Assembly: GCF_000482245.1 (NCBI RefSeq)
Contig: NZ_AWNH01000012.1
Span: 1 to 64,000, forward strand
Source of the DNA: Leptolyngbya sp. Heron Island J
GTDB taxonomy: Bacteria > Cyanobacteriota > Cyanobacteriia > Phormidesmidales > Phormidesmidaceae
Direction of reading: 5' to 3'
Length of the DNA: 64,000 nucleotides
Shown: positions 47,775 to 61,263 of the stretch, one piece after another
Layout: each line of letters opens with the position of its first letter
Position numbering within the stretch: the stretch's first letter is position 1
The notes under the pieces: model-generated
What the model saw: only the letters and a program-made list of their open reading frames with translations
What the model was told of the DNA's origin: nothing
Databases searched by the model: none
Program-made: the position numbers and the translations under genes

Positions 47775-48467
47775 ATGTCGTCATCAACATCCAATTTTGA
47801 TAATTTACTGTACGAATCATGCCCTACTGAGTTTTTGACTGGTTTGCTTCAAGCATTGGATAGGTCATATAAAGTGACTGAGAAAAATGTAAGTTATCCA
47901 ACCTTTGAAAGACCTGAAGCGATGGATGTACGTGGGCATTACCTACGAGGAAAGTTTGAGACAGAATGGAAGAGATTAGCCGCAAGTTTTCCAAGCGCTT
48001 ATGTTGAAAGTCGAAAAAATCATAGGAAAACCAGCAATTACACCTGGGTGCAATTTGGGCGTCTATTTTTAACTGCTTCTTCTGTTCCAGAAAGAGGTAG
48101 AAAACCTAGACCAGCTCAATTCAGAGGAAATTACGCTTCAGCAAATGGCCAGCTTGAACTCGAAATGGACTTATATGAGCGTCCGCAATTAGAAGGAGAG
48201 CCTGTTTATGGAATATTTCTTTATGGCCCCTTGAAAGCAACTTTACCCAGCATTGCTACAGTTGCCTTTCCAGACATTAAATGGAAAATTTTTCTTGACA
48301 AAATAGATTTACTTAAGCGGCATCCTGGCTTTTTTGGTACAAATGAACTAGATGTCGAGGTGCAGTATGAACCAAGGCCTGAAGTAGGAGATCTATCTCC
48401 AGAAGAAATCATTCCGGAGCCCGATTTGCCTATTATTCGCCGTCGTCCTGCAGAAGAAGAAGGTTAA
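47775..48467 (+). CDS. Unknown protein paired with an XRE-ImmA/IrrE protease
   Basis: A 230-residue protein with no membrane segment. The N-terminal half is helical and the C-terminal half beta-rich with a Pro/Glu/Arg tail. It is 2 bp upstream of the protease gene and under the same operator. In such pairs one member is often the target or antitoxin of the metalloprotease regulator. The exact role here is unknown. Confidence 0.55.
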   Translation: MSSSTSNFDNLLYESCPTEFLTGLLQALDRSYKVTEKNVSYPTFERPEAMDVRGHYLRGKFETEWKRLAASFPSAYVESRKNHRKTSNYTWVQFGRLFLTASSVPERGRKPRPAQFRGNYASANGQLELEMDLYERPQLEGEPVYGIFLYGPLKATLPSIATVAFPDIKWKIFLDKIDLLKRHPGFFGTNELDVEVQYEPRPEVGDLSPEEIIPEPDLPIIRRRPAEEEG

Positions 48468-48469
48468 TT

Positions 48470-49702
48470 ATGCTGTTAGAAAACATATCAGGATTTAATG
48501 GGGTCAACCTCATCGAAGCTAGAGAAGCTAGAGGACTCACTGGCAAAGAGTTTGGTAAGCTGCTTGGCGTAACTCGTCAAACTATTTCAAATTACGAAAA
48601 CAACAAACGGAAGCCCTCTTTGCAGACTTTAGAAAAAATAAGTGAAAAGCTTAATTTTCCGTACTCATTTTTTCTTAATTCATCAACAGAAAACTCTGAA
48701 ATAGTAGCGCCAATTTTTTACAGATCAATGAGTGGCGCTACGAAAAATGCTAGAAGAAAAGCTGAGATCAAGTTTAATTGGCTTGTAAAACTAGTTTTAT
48801 ATCTAAGTGTTTTCGTAGAAACTCCAGAAGTAAATTTTCCAGACTTTGATTTGCCATCTGACCCAAATCATATATCTGATGAAGAAATTGAAAGGATTGC
48901 AATCGAGGTTAGACGTTTTTGGGGGCTTGGAGATGGGCCTATAAGTAATTTTCTATGGCTTCTAGAGAACAATGGAGGAATAGTAGTTCGTAGATCCCTA
49001 GAAGCAAAAAAGTTAGATGCTTTTTCTCATTGGCGAGACGGGGTTCCCTACATTGTGATAACTAATGACAAACTTAGCTGCGCAAGAGCGAGATTCAGTG
49101 CAGCTCATGAACTAGGGCATTTAATACTTCACCGAAATGTTCCTCAGATATGTCTCAATAAACCTGAGTATTTCAAGTTAATTGAACATCAAGCCAATAG
49201 ATTCGCCGCTGCAATTCAAATGCCTTCAACAGCTTTTTATAAGGAAGTTAAGCGGATTAACCTTGAAGCTTTTCGCTTTCTGAAGCAAAGGTGGAAGCTT
49301 TCAATTGCGATGTTCATAACAAGGGCAGAAGACCTAGGTTGTTCAGACTCAAAAAAGGCTTTGTCTTTATGGAAATCATACAGCCGGAATGGGTGGAAGA
49401 CATTTGAACCATTAGATGATGATCTGCCATTAGAAGAACCTAAGCTAATCAAAAATACCGCTGATGTTTTACTAACAGAAAAAGTGATTAGCAAGCAGCA
49501 AATTCTTGATCAAATGGATTTATTTCATTTAGATGTGGAAGATTGTGCCGGATTACCAGAAAATTATTTGAACCCGAGACTAGGTGAAGTTCTAGATCTC
49601 AAGATCAAGCTACGTAGCAGAGATAAAAACAAGAAAGAACTTACAGAAAGGCACTCTGGAGATGTACTAATTTTTCCACATCCAGAAAAGTTGGAAAACT
49701 AG
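48470..49702 (+). CDS. XRE HTH fused to an ImmA/IrrE-type metalloprotease
   Basis: The 410-residue protein has an XRE HTH (residues 12-65, GKEFGKLLGVTRQTISNYE) and a zinc protease domain with HELGH at 213-217 and a second motif EHQANRFAAA starting at Glu239. ImmA/IrrE proteases inactivate a repressor in response to DNA damage or phage signals. The protein is a single-chain regulator-protease and stands second in a two-gene cassette controlled by a perfect palindrome. A toxin-antitoxin or defence-type switch is a reasonable reading. Confidence 0.8.
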   Translation: MLLENISGFNGVNLIEAREARGLTGKEFGKLLGVTRQTISNYENNKRKPSLQTLEKISEKLNFPYSFFLNSSTENSEIVAPIFYRSMSGATKNARRKAEIKFNWLVKLVLYLSVFVETPEVNFPDFDLPSDPNHISDEEIERIAIEVRRFWGLGDGPISNFLWLLENNGGIVVRRSLEAKKLDAFSHWRDGVPYIVITNDKLSCARARFSAAHELGHLILHRNVPQICLNKPEYFKLIEHQANRFAAAIQMPSTAFYKEVKRINLEAFRFLKQRWKLSIAMFITRAEDLGCSDSKKALSLWKSYSRNGWKTFEPLDDDLPLEEPKLIKNTADVLLTEKVISKQQILDQMDLFHLDVEDCAGLPENYLNPRLGEVLDLKIKLRSRDKNKKELTERHSGDVLIFPHPEKLEN

Positions 49703-52686: not shown

Positions 52687-53367
52687 TTACTCAGCCTCTG
52701 ACAGTCGTTTTATCAGGTCGGCTTTCTTAAGCTTGGAGTAGCCTGTTATCCCTCGTTTCTTCGCCCTTTTCTTTAGCTCTGTGGCAGTGAATGTATCAAG
52801 AAGTATAGGATCAGTGATCACCTCAGGTAGAGGTTCGGGCTCTAAGTAAAAAACCTTTCTCAGTTCCTTGAGCTTCCCTTTTGTAATTCTGCATTTTAAT
52901 TTGGTAATTGGCTCCAGAGTCTTCCAGTACTTACGTGGAGCGCTGTCAATACGTCCAGCAGTTGTAGCTACACTAACTCCCTTAAGTAATGTCCCAGGCT
53001 GCTTAATCAGATAGTCGAGGGCAGCCGCTATCTGTTTGTGTGTAGCCTTAGATAGGTTAATACGAGGTACTGTGTCATGGGCTAGCACAGAGGATACCAA
53101 GGCAGTATCAGCAGAGTCATCAGCAATGATGCACCAGGCTTTCTCAAGTCCAGCTTCTGCGATCGCTTCGTAGACAAATGCATTCGCTACGACTTCATAC
53201 TGGTCAACTCCAACCTCTTTAACAATGAGAGGTATCCAGTTTCGCTGACTTACTCGAAGCAAACTACTAGCCTCATGAATTAAAAACTCATGAGCTTCTG
53301 TCAACGGACCTGGCTCAATTTCGTCAAATGGCAAACACATAAGATTGCCAATATCTCTTATCCCCAT
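52687..53367 (-). CDS. parB: ParB-like centromere-binding protein with SAP/Rho-N tail
   Basis: The 226-residue protein overlaps parA by 10 bp. Residues about 40-85 (NWIPLIVKEVGVDQYEVV and the segments after it) resemble the N-terminal ParB/Srx fold. The centre is helical. Residues 190-226 (TATELKKRAKKRGITGYSK then KKADLIKRL) look like a SAP or Rho N-terminal nucleic-acid-binding motif. Together with ParA it would segregate the replicon. No CTP-binding motif is confirmed. Confidence 0.6.
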   Translation of the reverse strand: MGIRDIGNLMCLPFDEIEPGPLTEAHEFLIHEASSLLRVSQRNWIPLIVKEVGVDQYEVVANAFVYEAIAEAGLEKAWCIIADDSADTALVSSVLAHDTVPRINLSKATHKQIAAALDYLIKQPGTLLKGVSVATTAGRIDSAPRKYWKTLEPITKLKCRITKGKLKELRKVFYLEPEPLPEVITDPILLDTFTATELKKRAKKRGITGYSKLKKADLIKRLSEAE

Positions 53368-54698
53368 AACAAATAATCCTTAATGAATTTTCTATATTGC
53401 TGAAATGCGACTTTTGAGCAAAATGCAGCTGGTGTGTGGAGAAAATCGGCCTTAGCAATGTTCGCCATATAGCGAATTTTCACCATTTCAAAATCTCGAC
53501 GCCCCTTAGTCCATTTAGGGTAAAAATATGGTCTCAAATTAAATCCTTTTTTCTTCCCATCCTTGATGACCTGTTCAATAGCCTTATGCATAATTTCAGA
53601 CAGGCTAGGTGAAATTTTAGATGGATGGCTATTAAAAAGTACTACTAAAGGTATAGGCCCAGCATCCCCAAAGCTCCTTCGTCGCCCCTTCTGTATTTCT
53701 GGTAATAAATCAGTGACTGCCATGCCTGCATTTTGCAGGGAATGGAGATTATCATGGCGCGCTGGCATCAGGACGACATCTGCCGCATAAACAGCCTGCT
53801 GAGAAAAAACTCGCCAGTTTGGAGGTACGTCGATCAGTATGTAGTCGTACTTAGTCTGTTTTACTGATTCCAGAGTCTTTAATAGCGAATGATCTTTAAC
53901 ATACTGCCTTAATCCAACTTCATCGGCTTCAGAAACCATTTTCGCGTCGGAAAGGATCAGGTCAAAGCCAACTTTTTCCCCACTTCGAAATTTATACTCA
54001 TAGGATGTAATGCTTTCACAAATATCAGCATTCTTTTCTGTTAACATTCGCCACATCTGCCCTTGAGATGGAGGCAGACCCAAGGCATCGCCTAAATCCT
54101 GCTGGTTAGGATCAAAGTCAATAGCAAGCACACGCTTACCAAGAACCGTTAAAGCTGCAGCCAAATTGATGGTAGTAGTGGTTTTGCCAACACCACCTTT
54201 ATTGTTGTAGATCGCTATCGTTAAACCCCTGGGGACGATATTCATCCGCTCACGAAACTTTCTAGCAATTCCGTCTGGGTCTGAGCACTCCAAGCACGGA
54301 GTCACTGGGTATATAACCTTTCCGTGTTTTCGGAATAGCTGAGCATGCAGCGAGTTTGTAATGATACCCCATTGCACCGACTCGGATTTATCGCCCAAGA
54401 GGTAGCGCTTCAACTGATCTACAACTTTCACATATTCCTTTTGACCTTCAGCCAAATCTTTGTCTTGCCCCTTGGTTTCGACATATAGATAAGGATCACG
54501 TCTTGTGTCAATAAACCTGCCATTTTCTGTGCTTTTGCCTGCTGCATGGTCAACCGGACCCGCTCCCGTAGGGAACTGAAAGAATATGTCGTCCTTAGTG
54601 AAACCTAAAGCCTGAATAAAAGCAGGGGTAAATTCGCGCTCAACAAATGCTTCTTCTGCCCCATCAGGCAATTGATCGATAATTTCCTTTAAACTCAT
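53358..54698 (-). CDS. parA: ParA partition ATPase with N-terminal PD-(D/E)XK-like domain
   Basis: In the 446-residue protein, residues about 1-150 resemble the type I restriction R-subunit N-terminal domain (HSDR_N). Asp68 in RRDPY is followed by YVETKG, giving Glu74-x-Lys76, and an LFR..G segment. Residues 160-446 are a ParA ATPase: NNKGGVGKTTTT with signature Lys167 and Lys172, a Walker A' LAIDFDPNQQDL and a Walker B ILIDVPP. ParA proteins position and separate replicons on the nucleoid. The nuclease-like domain is not part of usual ParA and may bind DNA or act as a guard. Confidence 0.8.
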   Translation of the reverse strand: MSLKEIIDQLPDGAEEAFVEREFTPAFIQALGFTKDDIFFQFPTGAGPVDHAAGKSTENGRFIDTRRDPYLYVETKGQDKDLAEGQKEYVKVVDQLKRYLLGDKSESVQWGIITNSLHAQLFRKHGKVIYPVTPCLECSDPDGIARKFRERMNIVPRGLTIAIYNNKGGVGKTTTTINLAAALTVLGKRVLAIDFDPNQQDLGDALGLPPSQGQMWRMLTEKNADICESITSYEYKFRSGEKVGFDLILSDAKMVSEADEVGLRQYVKDHSLLKTLESVKQTKYDYILIDVPPNWRVFSQQAVYAADVVLMPARHDNLHSLQNAGMAVTDLLPEIQKGRRRSFGDAGPIPLVVLFNSHPSKISPSLSEIMHKAIEQVIKDGKKKGFNLRPYFYPKWTKGRRDFEMVKIRYMANIAKADFLHTPAAFCSKVAFQQYRKFIKDYLLWG

Positions 54699-57768: not shown

Positions 57769-58898
57769 GAGAAACCTGTATTCGCCATCAACCAAAACAA
57801 ATAATGGCAGTCATTAGGCAGGATTATTACGACATAACCGCTGATGCCGTAGCTTCAGCATTGATCAATTTTTTTGAATTTCGTGCCAACGGCGTTATCT
57901 CAAGCAACTCCAACCAAGCCAATTCGGAAGATATACCTCTAGGGGAAATATCAATAAAAGAGTTTCAAGAGGCTTTGCTAGGGCTTTCTACGGACAAGCA
58001 AATTAGAAAGCGACTAGATTATCTCATACAGCAAAAAATCGTCTCTAGAGCAAAAAAAACAGGACGTGTAACTGAATTTGTATTTCATATAGGAAACACG
58101 CAGAGCGCCATCGACCACCCCGGTCAAATGACCGCACCATACCCCGGTCATTTGACCAAAGAACCCCGGTCAAATGACCAAAGAACCCCGGTCAAACAAC
58201 CGCACCAACCCCGGTCAAATGACCGTTCATCTATATATAAGAATAATTTAAAAGAAAAAGAAGAAAGAAAGAAGGATCCTTCCCCTTTTGAAAAGCCTGC
58301 TACGCAGCCCGAGGAAATCAATTCTTCTGTTCAGATTAATGAACAAAATTCTGGGCAAACGGGATCGGCTTCGCTTGATTTGGGTCAGGCTAAATCGGTA
58401 GGCAAAGATCAAGGGGGTAATGTTCCGCCGCCGCCAAAAGTTGGCGTTGTTACGTACAAGCAGTCTCCCGAGTCGATAGACCTTTCTGAGCTGTGGGAGG
58501 TTGCAGAGTACGAGGCCAAAGCCAAGGCTAGAGCTTTAGCTCCTGGCCACAGACATCCAGCTTTGGTCGCTCATGGGTTGGGAGATATCTGGGTAGGGCC
58601 AAACGTAAGCGATTTTGATGCAGGATTGTTGGCATTAATTGCTAAAAACAAAAAAACTGGCAATCATCCCGACAATCGGGCCGCTTGCGTGACGTTTATC
58701 ACTAGGGCGATCAGGGATGCTGACTGGGCAAAGCTTGAGGCTCTTTGGCTGGATGTCCAACAGAAAACGCGACAACAGCCAGCTTTGACCGTCATTGATG
58801 CGCCTTTACCAAAGAAAGAAACAGGGAAATATTCACCTCCGCCTGAAAAAAATTGGGCAAAGAACGTACTAGGAGCAAGATATCGAAATGCAGGCTAA
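57765..58898 (+). CDS. Replication initiator, lambda-O-like in layout
   Basis: The 377-residue protein has an N-terminal DNA-binding-like region (about 20-110) with winged-helix character and a long polar linker (about 117-235). The C-terminal domain (235-370) is suited to helicase loading. The linker is encoded by five iterons and an AT-rich tract. The gene runs directly into dnaB. This mirrors lambda O followed by P or DnaB, where the origin lies inside the initiator gene. Start is a GTG overlapping the previous stop. Confidence 0.7.
   Translation: MRETCIRHQPKQIMAVIRQDYYDITADAVASALINFFEFRANGVISSNSNQANSEDIPLGEISIKEFQEALLGLSTDKQIRKRLDYLIQQKIVSRAKKTGRVTEFVFHIGNTQSAIDHPGQMTAPYPGHLTKEPRSNDQRTPVKQPHQPRSNDRSSIYKNNLKEKEERKKDPSPFEKPATQPEEINSSVQINEQNSGQTGSASLDLGQAKSVGKDQGGNVPPPPKVGVVTYKQSPESIDLSELWEVAEYEAKAKARALAPGHRHPALVAHGLGDIWVGPNVSDFDAGLLALIAKNKKTGNHPDNRAACVTFITRAIRDADWAKLEALWLDVQQKTRQQPALTVIDAPLPKKETGKYSPPPEKNWAKNVLGARYRNAG
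58118..58275 (+). other. Putative replication origin: five iterons plus AT-rich tract
   Basis: The unit CCCCGGTCAAATGACC occurs at 58118, 58142 (reversed centre), 58164, 58186 (imperfect) and 58209, at 22-24 bp spacing. Its core GGTCAAATGACC is nearly palindromic. It is followed at 58225-58275 by an AT/purine-rich unwinding tract. Confidence 0.75.
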
Positions 58899-61263
58899 CA
58901 ACACCACACCCATTCTCCCGTTTCGGTCACCTAAGACGGCTGACCCTGCCAACATAGACGCTGAGTACGACATCATCGGCGCAATCCTGGTTGACCCAGG
59001 CGCGATCGCTCGGATTGCTCACAAGCTACCCCCAGAGGCGTTCTATGTGCACAACCACCGCACCATCTACCAGGCTTGCCTAGAGCTTCACAGGGATGGC
59101 CAAATTGTTGACCTGATGACCGTATGCACTGCGCTGGCCAATAACAAGCAGTTGGATAAGGTTGGCGGGAAGAGTGCGATCGCGCAAATGTTTGATCTAT
59201 GCCTAACGTCGGCAAATGTCGAGCAACACGCCGATTTAATTCTTGAAAAGCACTTTCGTCGCTGCATGGCCCGTGCAGGCGCAGAAATCCAAGAGATTTC
59301 CAAAGATGTCAGTCGGGGGTTGGGTGATTGCCTAAGTGAAGCTCAGAGGTCACTAGGCAGACTTTTGGAATTGGGCGTTAGTGAAAGCAGTGTTATCAAG
59401 CTTGACCAGGTAGTTGCTTTGAATATTTGCAAAACTGAAGACGCAGCTGATGACAAGATCCCTAAAGGCATCCCGACTGGTTTTTATGACTTAGACGAAA
59501 TGCTTCGTGGAGTAAAACCAGGTGAGCTAATTATCTTGGCTGGTCGTCCGTCGATGGGTAAATGCCTTGGTAAAGGCACCAGGGTTGTGATGTTTGATGG
59601 AACCCTTAAGGCGGTTGAGAATGTTGCCGTAGGTGATTTGCTAATGGGTCCTGATTCAAAGCCGAGGAAGGTATTAAGCTTGGCTCGTGGAAGAGAAATG
59701 ATGTATTGGGTCAGGCAAAAAAGAGCTATTGACTATCGAGTAAATGAAAGTCATATTCTGTCTCTTAAATACAGTGGAGATAATGGGACAATCAAGCATG
59801 GTGACATTTTTAACGTCTCTGTTAGGGGATATCTTGATAAGTCTCAACGATTCAAGGAAAGAGCTAAGGGGTACAAAGTTGCTGTAGATTGGCCAGACCA
59901 GCCACTTAAGATCGATCCTTATCTGTTGGGTGTCTGGCTTGGTGATGGCTCCACCGGAAAGGGTTCAATTCATAACCCTGATCCTGAGATAGAAAACTTT
60001 TTGCGGGACTACTCAAGTAAAACTGGCTGTGAGTATCGTTGCTACGACAGAGAAAGTTGCCCTGAGCATGTTCTGATTAATGCGTCAAACGCTAAAGGGT
60101 TATGGACGTTGTTGGGGGAGTTGGGCTTGCAAGGCGATAAGCGTATACCAGACAGCTATGTCGCAAACTCAATAGACAAACGGATGAATTTGCTCGCAGG
60201 GCTTTTGGATACAGATGGATATTATTGCAGTAAGTTCAATTGCTTTGAAATCACTCTGAAATCGAAGATTTTGTCTGAGCAAGTCAAGTATCTGGCAGAC
60301 ACCCTTGGTTTCAGAACTAGCCTCAATTCAAAGCAGGGGACTATCAAGGAGGTCAACTTTTCCGGTACGTACTACCGAGTCAGGATCTCTGGAGATCTTG
60401 ACTCTATCCCAACTAAAGTCGAAAGGAAGCAGGCCAGAGCACTAAAGACTAAGCGTGACTGGAGAAATACTGGCGTATCTGTAGAAAAAGATTGCGTAGA
60501 CGATTACTACGGGTTTGAGATTGACGGAGATCATCTTTTCTTGCTTGAAGATCTGACCGTTACTCACAATACAGCTGGGTTGGTTAACGTGGCTGTTAAT
60601 GTCGCAGCTCAGGGGCGCGGGGTCTACATTTCAAGCCTTGAAATGAGCGCTGAGCAACTTGGTTATCGCATTATGTCGGCTGACTCTTCTATTGAGTCTG
60701 GGAGGCTACGAGATGGCAAAGTAGGGCAACATGAATGGCCAAGCTTAGGTGAGTCAGTGACAAAGTTAGCCGGTCTTCCCGTCTGGATTGACGATAGTTT
60801 TCGCCAGACACCTGAGACTGTTGCAGCTAATATTCAGCGAATCAATGCTGAGAATGGGCCAGGCACGATCAATCTGGCCATGGTGGACTACATCCAGCTT
60901 ATGGGAGATCGCGGTGCAGGCAATCGAGTCGCAGAACTTGGAAAGATCTCCCGTGGATTTAAAGGAATGGCGAAGGAGCTAGGGCTTAGTGTCTGGACGT
61001 TGTCTCAGCTGTCGCGTGGTGTTGAGTCGCGCAATCCGAAACGACCTCTAATGAGTGATCTGAGGGAATCTGGAAATATCGAAGAGGATGCAGATGCCGT
61101 AATCCTCTTGTACAGGGAGGATTATTACGATCCTGACACGCCTGACAGAGGGCTTGCCGAATGGATCGTTGGCAAGAACCGCAATGGTCCCACAGGTACG
61201 GTCAAGTTGTTATTTGAGCCTGCTTTCACCAGATTCCGTAACCTAGCGCCAAGGATTGGGTAG
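58888..61263 (+). CDS. dnaB: DnaB-type replicative helicase interrupted by an intein
   Basis: The 791-residue precursor holds a DnaB helicase of about 455 residues after splicing. It has the N-terminal DnaB domain (about 22-130), the linker, and the RecA-like core with P-loop GRPSMGK broken at Lys225 by an intein, then AGL after the insertion. Later motifs include LAMVDYIQLM and SQLSRGVESRNPKRPLMSDL. DnaB unwinds DNA at the fork and would be loaded by the initiator encoded just upstream (11-bp overlap). The host helicase cannot work until the intein is removed. Confidence 0.95.
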   Translation: MQANNTTPILPFRSPKTADPANIDAEYDIIGAILVDPGAIARIAHKLPPEAFYVHNHRTIYQACLELHRDGQIVDLMTVCTALANNKQLDKVGGKSAIAQMFDLCLTSANVEQHADLILEKHFRRCMARAGAEIQEISKDVSRGLGDCLSEAQRSLGRLLELGVSESSVIKLDQVVALNICKTEDAADDKIPKGIPTGFYDLDEMLRGVKPGELIILAGRPSMGKCLGKGTRVVMFDGTLKAVENVAVGDLLMGPDSKPRKVLSLARGREMMYWVRQKRAIDYRVNESHILSLKYSGDNGTIKHGDIFNVSVRGYLDKSQRFKERAKGYKVAVDWPDQPLKIDPYLLGVWLGDGSTGKGSIHNPDPEIENFLRDYSSKTGCEYRCYDRESCPEHVLINASNAKGLWTLLGELGLQGDKRIPDSYVANSIDKRMNLLAGLLDTDGYYCSKFNCFEITLKSKILSEQVKYLADTLGFRTSLNSKQGTIKEVNFSGTYYRVRISGDLDSIPTKVERKQARALKTKRDWRNTGVSVEKDCVDDYYGFEIDGDHLFLLEDLTVTHNTAGLVNVAVNVAAQGRGVYISSLEMSAEQLGYRIMSADSSIESGRLRDGKVGQHEWPSLGESVTKLAGLPVWIDDSFRQTPETVAANIQRINAENGPGTINLAMVDYIQLMGDRGAGNRVAELGKISRGFKGMAKELGLSVWTLSQLSRGVESRNPKRPLMSDLRESGNIEEDADAVILLYREDYYDPDTPDRGLAEWIVGKNRNGPTGTVKLLFEPAFTRFRNLAPRIG
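59563..60570 (+). other. DnaB intein with LAGLIDADG homing endonuclease
   Basis: A 336-residue insert (Cys226 to Asn561) lies between the Lys and Thr of the P-loop GRPSMGK-T. It starts CLGKGTRV with nucleophile Cys1, has an NESH block B, LLGVWLGDGS and LLAGLLDTDGY endonuclease motifs, and ends TVTHN before a Thr. All splicing residues are present, so both splicing and homing activity are expected. Confidence 0.92.

What the first reader, a model, noticed from the sequence alone, without database searches (positions are those of the whole stretch)
53358..54698. ParA fused to a restriction-endonuclease-like N-terminal domain
The partition ATPase carries about 150 extra residues that look like the HSDR_N nuclease domain (Asp68, Glu74-x-Lys76). 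ParA proteins usually lack a nuclease fold. The fusion could bind DNA near the replicon, attack competing plasmids or link segregation to DNA integrity. The ParB-like partner with a SAP/Rho-N tail is also unusual.
Basis: partly seen in the sequence, partly recalled or inferred. Interest (0 to 1): 0.72.

Follow-up and report, generated by a model that had tools for sequence, protein, structure and literature searches.

The report
Nuclease-armed ParA with ParB-like partner
A gene pair kept across many cyanobacteria joins a DNA-cutting domain to the ATP-driven switch normally used to sort plasmids and pairs it with a DNA-binding partner, which looks more like a DNA-cutting guard or maintenance machine than a plasmid-sorting one.

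Summary
The 446-residue protein (53358-54698, minus strand) is an HsdR-type PD-(D/E)XK domain (about 1-141) fused to a complete ParA/Soj ATPase (156-446). One detail is wrong: the catalytic Asp is Asp50, not Asp68. In 70 distinct relatives Glu16 is kept in 70, Asp50 in 68, Glu74 in 70, Lys76 in 69; Asp68 in only 7. An AlphaFold2 model (pLDDT 92) has the expected order of nuclease elements. A ParB-like gene follows in 66 of 73 distinct relatives; it combines a ParB/sulfiredoxin fold without the GERR CTP motif, a helix-hairpin-helix-like region and a Rho_N/SAP tail. So this is a conserved two-gene system, seen here only in cyanobacteria. It is mostly chromosomal; in one genus it lies between housekeeping genes and is missing as a clean two-gene cassette in one genome. 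It also occurs on phages and plasmids; in the window it sits in a probable integrated prophage, and two plasmids that carry it also carry another partition system. Plasmid partition is therefore not its likely main job. Best reading: an ATP-switched DNA nuclease guided by a DNA-binding adaptor, for defence or genome maintenance. That function is inferred, not shown.

The parts
53358..54698 (-). Gene A: HsdR-type PD-(D/E)XK nuclease domain fused to a ParA/Soj ATPase (446 aa)
   Evidence: ORF; domains; AF2 model; 70-member alignment
54276..54698 (-). N-terminal PD-(D/E)XK domain, residues 1-141; Glu16, Asp50, Glu74-x-Lys76, Gln95-xxx-Tyr99
53361..54233 (-). ParA/Soj-type ATPase domain, residues 156-446; deviant Walker A KGGVGKT at residues 167-173
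   Evidence: VIA-align Z 28.5 to H. pylori Soj 6iub_A, rmsd 2.9 over 255 residues; both Walker lysines in 70 of 70
52687..53367 (-). Gene B: ParB-like adaptor (226 aa), overlapping gene A by 10 bp
   Evidence: adjacent in 66 of 73 distinct relatives
53071..53355 (-). B residues 5-99: ParB/sulfiredoxin-like fold without the GERR motif
   Evidence: Z 13.1, rmsd 1.9 over 89 residues to M. xanthus ParB 7bnk_A; GERR in 0 of 23
52837..53067 (-). B residues 101-177: helical region resembling a ComEA-type helix-hairpin-helix module
   Evidence: 2duy Z 6.4, rmsd 2.4 over 62 residues; weak
52690..52815 (-). B residues 185-226: Rho_N/SAP nucleic-acid-binding tail
   Evidence: 2a8v Z 7.2, rmsd 1.1 over 42 residues; Rho_N in 17 of 23 members
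47775..48467 (+). Context only: RmrT-like gene (PADLOC label)
   Evidence: E 9e-12
48470..49702 (+). Context only: RmrA-like HTH plus M78 peptidase gene (PADLOC label)
   Evidence: E 1e-121; homologues also near the pair in L097 and L029

Best explanation
The pair is a stand-alone, two-gene, ATP-switched DNA nuclease. The ParA half is inferred to dimerise on DNA with ATP, bringing two HsdR-type nuclease domains together. The ParB-like partner, with its helix-hairpin-helix-like and SAP/Rho_N parts, is inferred to recognise a DNA target and trigger the switch. The likeliest use is restriction of incoming or abnormal DNA without a companion methylase, a service carried both by chromosomes and by phages and plasmids. 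Shown by computation: the domains, the conserved active site, the intact Walker motif, the gene pairing, the genomic locations and the gain/loss pattern. Inferred: dimerisation, cleavage, the target and the biological role.
For: Catalytic set kept: E16 70/70, D50 68/70, E74 70/70, K76 69/70, ranking 1, 7, 2 and 6 of 141 N-domain columns. The one K76 exception (L235) has also lost D50, as a decaying nuclease would. Walker lysines 70/70. Partner adjacent in 66 of 73 distinct relatives; 39 of the 42 cyanobacterial genomes with a B match also hit the A N-domain. Patchy: 49 of 386 cyanobacterial genomes at E<=2e-10, some of them truncated. Prophage, plasmid and chromosomal copies are interleaved on the tree. 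In the genus of G095, 10 of 12 genomes carry it; of the two that lack it, one has a clean empty site and one keeps only the end of B. RmrA homologues lie near the pair in 2 of 34 fusion loci although only 14 RmrA matches occur in 146 genomes.
Against: Neighbours of 20 chromosomal copies (118 proteins) show no clear excess of PADLOC defence models over 120 control proteins. PADLOC recognises no defence system in A or B. It is near-core in two genera (10 of 12, 11 of 11), steadier than many defence systems. Seven of 73 relatives, among them all four f19 loci read, have A without a recognisable B. No nuclease, ATPase or phage assay exists. No self/non-self rule is visible.
Confidence: 0.45

Rival explanations
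1. A chromosome-maintenance machine: the ParA-nuclease and its adaptor patrol the nucleoid and process abnormal DNA (replication or recombination intermediates) or link segregation to repair.
For: Mostly chromosomal, at conserved places between housekeeping genes; 11 of 11 genomes of one genus. The partner has HhH-like and SAP parts, the SAP part also matching FAN1.
Against: Absent from most cyanobacteria; carried by a prophage, a viral contig and plasmids; deleted without trace in one Microcystis-like genome.
Confidence: 0.27
2. A plasmid or phage partition system in which the nuclease-fold domain only binds DNA, as the N-terminal HTH of type Ia ParA does (recalled).
For: Complete ParA fold, ParB-fold partner, operon order ParA-ParB, and presence on plasmids.
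Against: Catalytic residues are among the most conserved of the domain. Partner lacks GERR (0 of 23) and has only 6 residues before its first strand. No clear parS-like repeat near the pair. Mostly chromosomal. Two plasmids carry another partition system too.
Confidence: 0.13
3. An addiction or toxin-antitoxin-like cassette: A is a toxic nuclease held in check by B.
For: Two-gene overlapping cassette lost as a unit in one genome; tight pairing.
Against: Seven of 73 relatives keep A with no recognisable B next to it, which an unrestrained toxin should not allow.
Confidence: 0.08

Closest known systems
HsdR N-terminal nuclease domain (HSDR_N, HSDR_N_2; type I restriction), and the MmeI N-domain
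   Same: Order of elements and motif set: Glu in the first helix, Asp, Glu-x-Lys, Gln-xxx-Tyr in most members
   Different: Fused to a ParA ATPase in place of the helicase motor; no HsdM or HsdS partner seen
ParA/Soj ATPases of ParABS
   Same: Deviant Walker A, whole fold, operon order with a ParB-fold partner
   Different: Armed with a nuclease domain; mainly chromosomal cassettes beside housekeeping genes; partner lacks GERR
ParB/Srx-fold proteins of conflict systems (DndB and GmrS-type; passages of PMC10853773, PMC12839542, PMC12373910 read)
   Same: ParB/sulfiredoxin fold used outside partition, in DNA-cutting systems
   Different: None is described there with a ParA-nuclease partner; a passage of PMC5512222 says ParA association is absent in its polyvalent ParB-like DNases
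MinD/ParA-like domains in conflict systems of PMC7159879 (passages read)
   Same: ParA-like domain in a predicted immune setting
   Different: Those domains are predicted inactive; here the Walker lysines are intact in 70 of 70

Membership tests
HsdR-type PD-(D/E)XK nuclease | Conserved Glu (helix 1), Asp, Glu-x-Lys | tested here: met
   E16 70/70, D50 68/70, E74 70/70, K76 69/70
HsdR-type PD-(D/E)XK nuclease | Gln-xxx-Tyr motif after the catalytic strand (motif recalled, not from a call) | tested here: met
   Q95 in 58 of 70, Y99 in 54 of 70; the Gln is Gly in 10
HsdR-type PD-(D/E)XK nuclease | Pfam HSDR_N score over the curated cutoff | tested here: inconclusive
   Window protein below cutoff (14.5 against 25); relatives L238, L239, L039 above it
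HsdR-type PD-(D/E)XK nuclease | Alpha-beta-beta-beta-alpha-beta core matching a solved nuclease | tested here: inconclusive
   Predicted order of elements fits, but the fold searches listed only ParA-domain matches and the domain was not folded alone
HsdR-type PD-(D/E)XK nuclease | DNA cleavage | not testable with these tools
   needs an assay
Type I restriction system | SF2 helicase motor in the same subunit, with HsdM and HsdS | tested here: not met
   No helicase family among the Pfam matches of A; B is the only gene that recurs beside A in most of the stretches compared (25 of 31 with A)
ParA/MinD ATPase | Deviant Walker A with signature Lys, and overall fold | tested here: met
   K167 and K172 in 70/70; Z 28.5, rmsd 2.9, 255 aligned to Soj
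ParABS partition system | Partner with the GERR CTP-binding motif (motif recalled) | tested here: not met
   0 of 23
ParABS partition system | ParB basic N-terminal tail that stimulates ParA (recalled) | tested here: not met
   First strand starts at residue 7 in the window protein
ParABS partition system | parS-like repeats near the operon | tested here: inconclusive
   Only weak imperfect repeats near the window pair and L227
ParABS partition system | Stabilises a replicon | not testable with these tools
   needs a plasmid-loss assay
Known anti-phage systems (PADLOC 2023) | Match to a named system model over most of the protein | tested here: not met
   A: only a short Walker-region match to PDC-M28B; B: none

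The most novel reading that the evidence does not exclude
A new immune principle in which a ParA switch, normally used to move DNA, is a nucleoid-patrolling trigger for a restriction nuclease: a DNA-bound ATP dimer holds two nuclease domains at the ready, and a ParB-fold adaptor that recognises DNA structure rather than a parS sequence licenses cutting of foreign or abnormal DNA.
Probability: 0.3. Interest if true: 0.82.

Novelty: new variant of a known kind. Interest (0 to 1): 0.62.

Why it matters
ParA ATPases are known as movers of DNA, carboxysomes and other cargo. A conserved family with an intact restriction-type active site on a working ParA switch would tie DNA positioning to DNA cutting. 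It occurs in bloom-forming and marine cyanobacteria (Microcystis, Prochlorococcus, Nostoc) and in their plasmids and phages, so if it restricts DNA it bears on cyanophage immunity and on how these organisms resist transformation. It is untested but easily testable, with point mutants in two separate active sites.

Tried and rejected
Asp68 as catalytic residue: rejected (7 of 70). Plasmid-only partition module: made unlikely by chromosomal location and integrated context. Defence-island test: 118 neighbour proteins against 120 control proteins taken at fixed coordinates of the same contigs; no clear PADLOC excess (one very long neighbour, in L215, was left out of the 119 listed). First count of the partner gave 65 of 73; its window was too narrow and missed L201, and the recount gave 66 of 73. 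Non-cyanobacterial fusions: full-length matches in the plasmid and genome scans were cyanobacterial (one search kept only the best 80 of 440); the window N-domain alone found only two Nostoc plasmids; 0 of 299 genomes of the phylum of G453 (its locus is titled Gammaproteobacteria) at E<=1e-6, a run with no positive control of its own, the same model ringing in cyanobacteria. Bacteroidota plasmid hits that seemed to start inside the N-domain: ParA genes of 942 and 966 bp, too short for the fusion; two similar hits had no annotation and were not followed. HSDR_N_2 in the window's own genome: no match at E<=0.001. parS-like repeats: none convincing. A viral-contig search with the partner alignment found no relative. 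Literature: searches listed no paper on this fusion; the library is licence-limited, and PMC3424549 and PMC4241021 were not held.

Full report
What is there. The window encodes, on the minus strand, a 446-residue protein (53358-54698) followed by a 226-residue protein (52687-53367) whose start overlaps it by 10 bp. Pfam finds a ParA-type ATPase at residues 160-317 of the first (AAA_31, E 3e-30) and a weak HSDR_N_2 match at 63-124, below the curated cutoff; the second has a Rho_N tail above the cutoff and a sub-threshold ParB_N match.

The fusion is real and conserved. The same genome (8.06 Mb, 119 contigs) has a second full-length copy at 47% identity on another contig. Relatives that cover at least 80% of the protein occur on six cyanobacterial plasmid records (six plasmid loci were read), on 16 named cyanobacterial genome contigs at 38-48% identity (one of them cut by the contig end) plus more distant ones, and on one viral contig. 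An N-domain model hits 70 of 386 cyanobacterial genomes at E<=0.001; the weaker hits include HsdR-length frames, and 49 of 386 are at E<=2e-10, some of them truncated. In the window's own family 20 of 57 genomes carry it.

The N-terminal domain is an HsdR-type PD-(D/E)XK domain. In 70 distinct relatives Glu16 is kept in 70, Asp50 in 68, Glu74 in 70 and Lys76 in 69. Two members depart: L038 has Asn for Asp50, and L235 has lost both Asp50 and Lys76. AF2 on a 22-row alignment gives mean pLDDT 92.1 and pTM 0.92, with the order of helices and strands expected of the nuclease core, Asp50 and Glu74 in successive core strands and Lys76 just after the second. Pfam HSDR_N_2 matches 13 of 22 members at E<=0.01, and three distant fusions pass its cutoff. 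A profile search of PDB sequences puts MmeI first, weakly (E 0.022). I could not search the domain's fold on its own.

The ATPase half is an ordinary, apparently working ParA: Walker lysines in 70 of 70, and Z 28.5 with rmsd 2.9 over 255 residues to H. pylori Soj.

The partner is not an ordinary ParB. Its model (pLDDT 90) has a ParB/sulfiredoxin fold at 8-99 (Z 13.1, rmsd 1.9 over 89 residues to M. xanthus ParB), a helical part at 94-175 resembling a ComEA-type helix-hairpin-helix (Z 6.4, weak), and a Rho_N/SAP tail at 185-226 (Z 7.2, rmsd 1.1 over 42 residues) that also matches FAN1. None of 23 relatives has the GERR motif; an Asn kept in 22 of 23 stands in that stretch. The tail is missing in the more distant subfamily.

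The two genes form one system. A B gene lies directly downstream of A in 66 of 73 distinct relatives; 7 lack it, including all four f19 loci examined (which corrects the 65). Of 42 cyanobacterial genomes with a B match, 39 also hit the A model; the three others have only partial B matches.

Where it lives. Twenty-two loci lie on contigs of 1.7-6.8 Mb, one of them a truncated copy. In one genus the pair sits near plsC and metG; in another A sits beside rpsB and tsf (gene names are my reading of the translations). The first genus is Microcystis by inference, because named Microcystis copies fall inside its clade. Ten of its 12 genomes carry the protein. Of the two that lack it, one shows a clean empty site and the other keeps only the end of B, so the pair behaves as a self-contained cassette. 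In the genus of G089, 11 of 11 genomes carry it. Plasmid, phage and chromosomal copies interleave on the tree: 6 changes between mobile and chromosomal location. The window copy lies in a prophage-like stretch with a head protein-like gene, a very long tape-measure-like ORF, and an integrase-like gene just outside the window at contig 65838-66998 (26.1 bits, cutoff 27.1), followed by genes that I read as chromosomal. An integrated prophage has no obvious need for partition. Two of six plasmid loci have another annotated partition system within the stretch read.

What it most likely does. Strict conservation of a nuclease active site and of the ParA switch, with a partner that has DNA-binding-like parts but lacks ParB's CTP motif, points to regulated DNA cutting rather than segregation. 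Patchy spread, exchange between mobile elements and chromosomes and clean cassette loss fit a defence function. RmrA-type genes lie near the pair in the window and in 2 of 34 other fusion loci totalling 0.44 Mb, although a survey found only 14 RmrA matches in 146 genomes; mobile elements are rich in such genes, so this is suggestive only. Against defence: no clear excess of PADLOC models among chromosomal neighbours, and near-core status in two genera. Genome maintenance is therefore a serious rival. Every step beyond sequence and predicted structure is inference.

Novelty. No NCBIfam, PHROGs or PADLOC model describes the fusion, records call the genes 'AAA family ATPase' and 'Rho termination factor N-terminal domain-containing protein', and nine paper searches listed nothing on it. 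I read passages only of PMC13190303, PMC10853773, PMC12839542, PMC12373910, PMC5512222 and PMC7159879. Each domain is known; the combination as a conserved two-gene system appears undescribed within that limited library.

Noticed in passing
window 47775-49702: RmrT/RmrA-like pair (PADLOC labels) in the same prophage-like stretch as the finding.
   Followed up: partly
window 58888-61263: DnaB replicative helicase interrupted by a Hint intein with LAGLIDADG homing endonuclease domains (Pfam).
   Followed up: no
L228 1838-2998 (contig C12 65838-66998): Integrase-like gene next to an N6/N4 DNA methylase gene just beyond the window, then genes read as chromosomal; probable right end of the prophage.
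   Followed up: partly
L211 8665-9762: Gene whose start looks like an RRXRR/IscB-type protein (recalled motif), beside the pair in one Microcystis-like genome and absent at that place in others.
   Followed up: no
L030 7581-9347: Xenococcus copy of the fusion with about 130 extra N-terminal residues that look TerB-like (recalled, not searched).
   Followed up: no
L238, L239, L039: More distant HSDR_N-ParA fusions over the Pfam cutoff, on long branches of the tree; possibly a separate origin of the same architecture.
   Followed up: partly
L235 8837-10216: Copy that has lost both the catalytic Asp and Lys while keeping the ATPase; a natural nuclease-dead member.
   Followed up: no
L035, L037, L031, L032, L219: Partner proteins in which the middle helical (helix-hairpin-helix-like) part appears repeated.
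   Followed up: no
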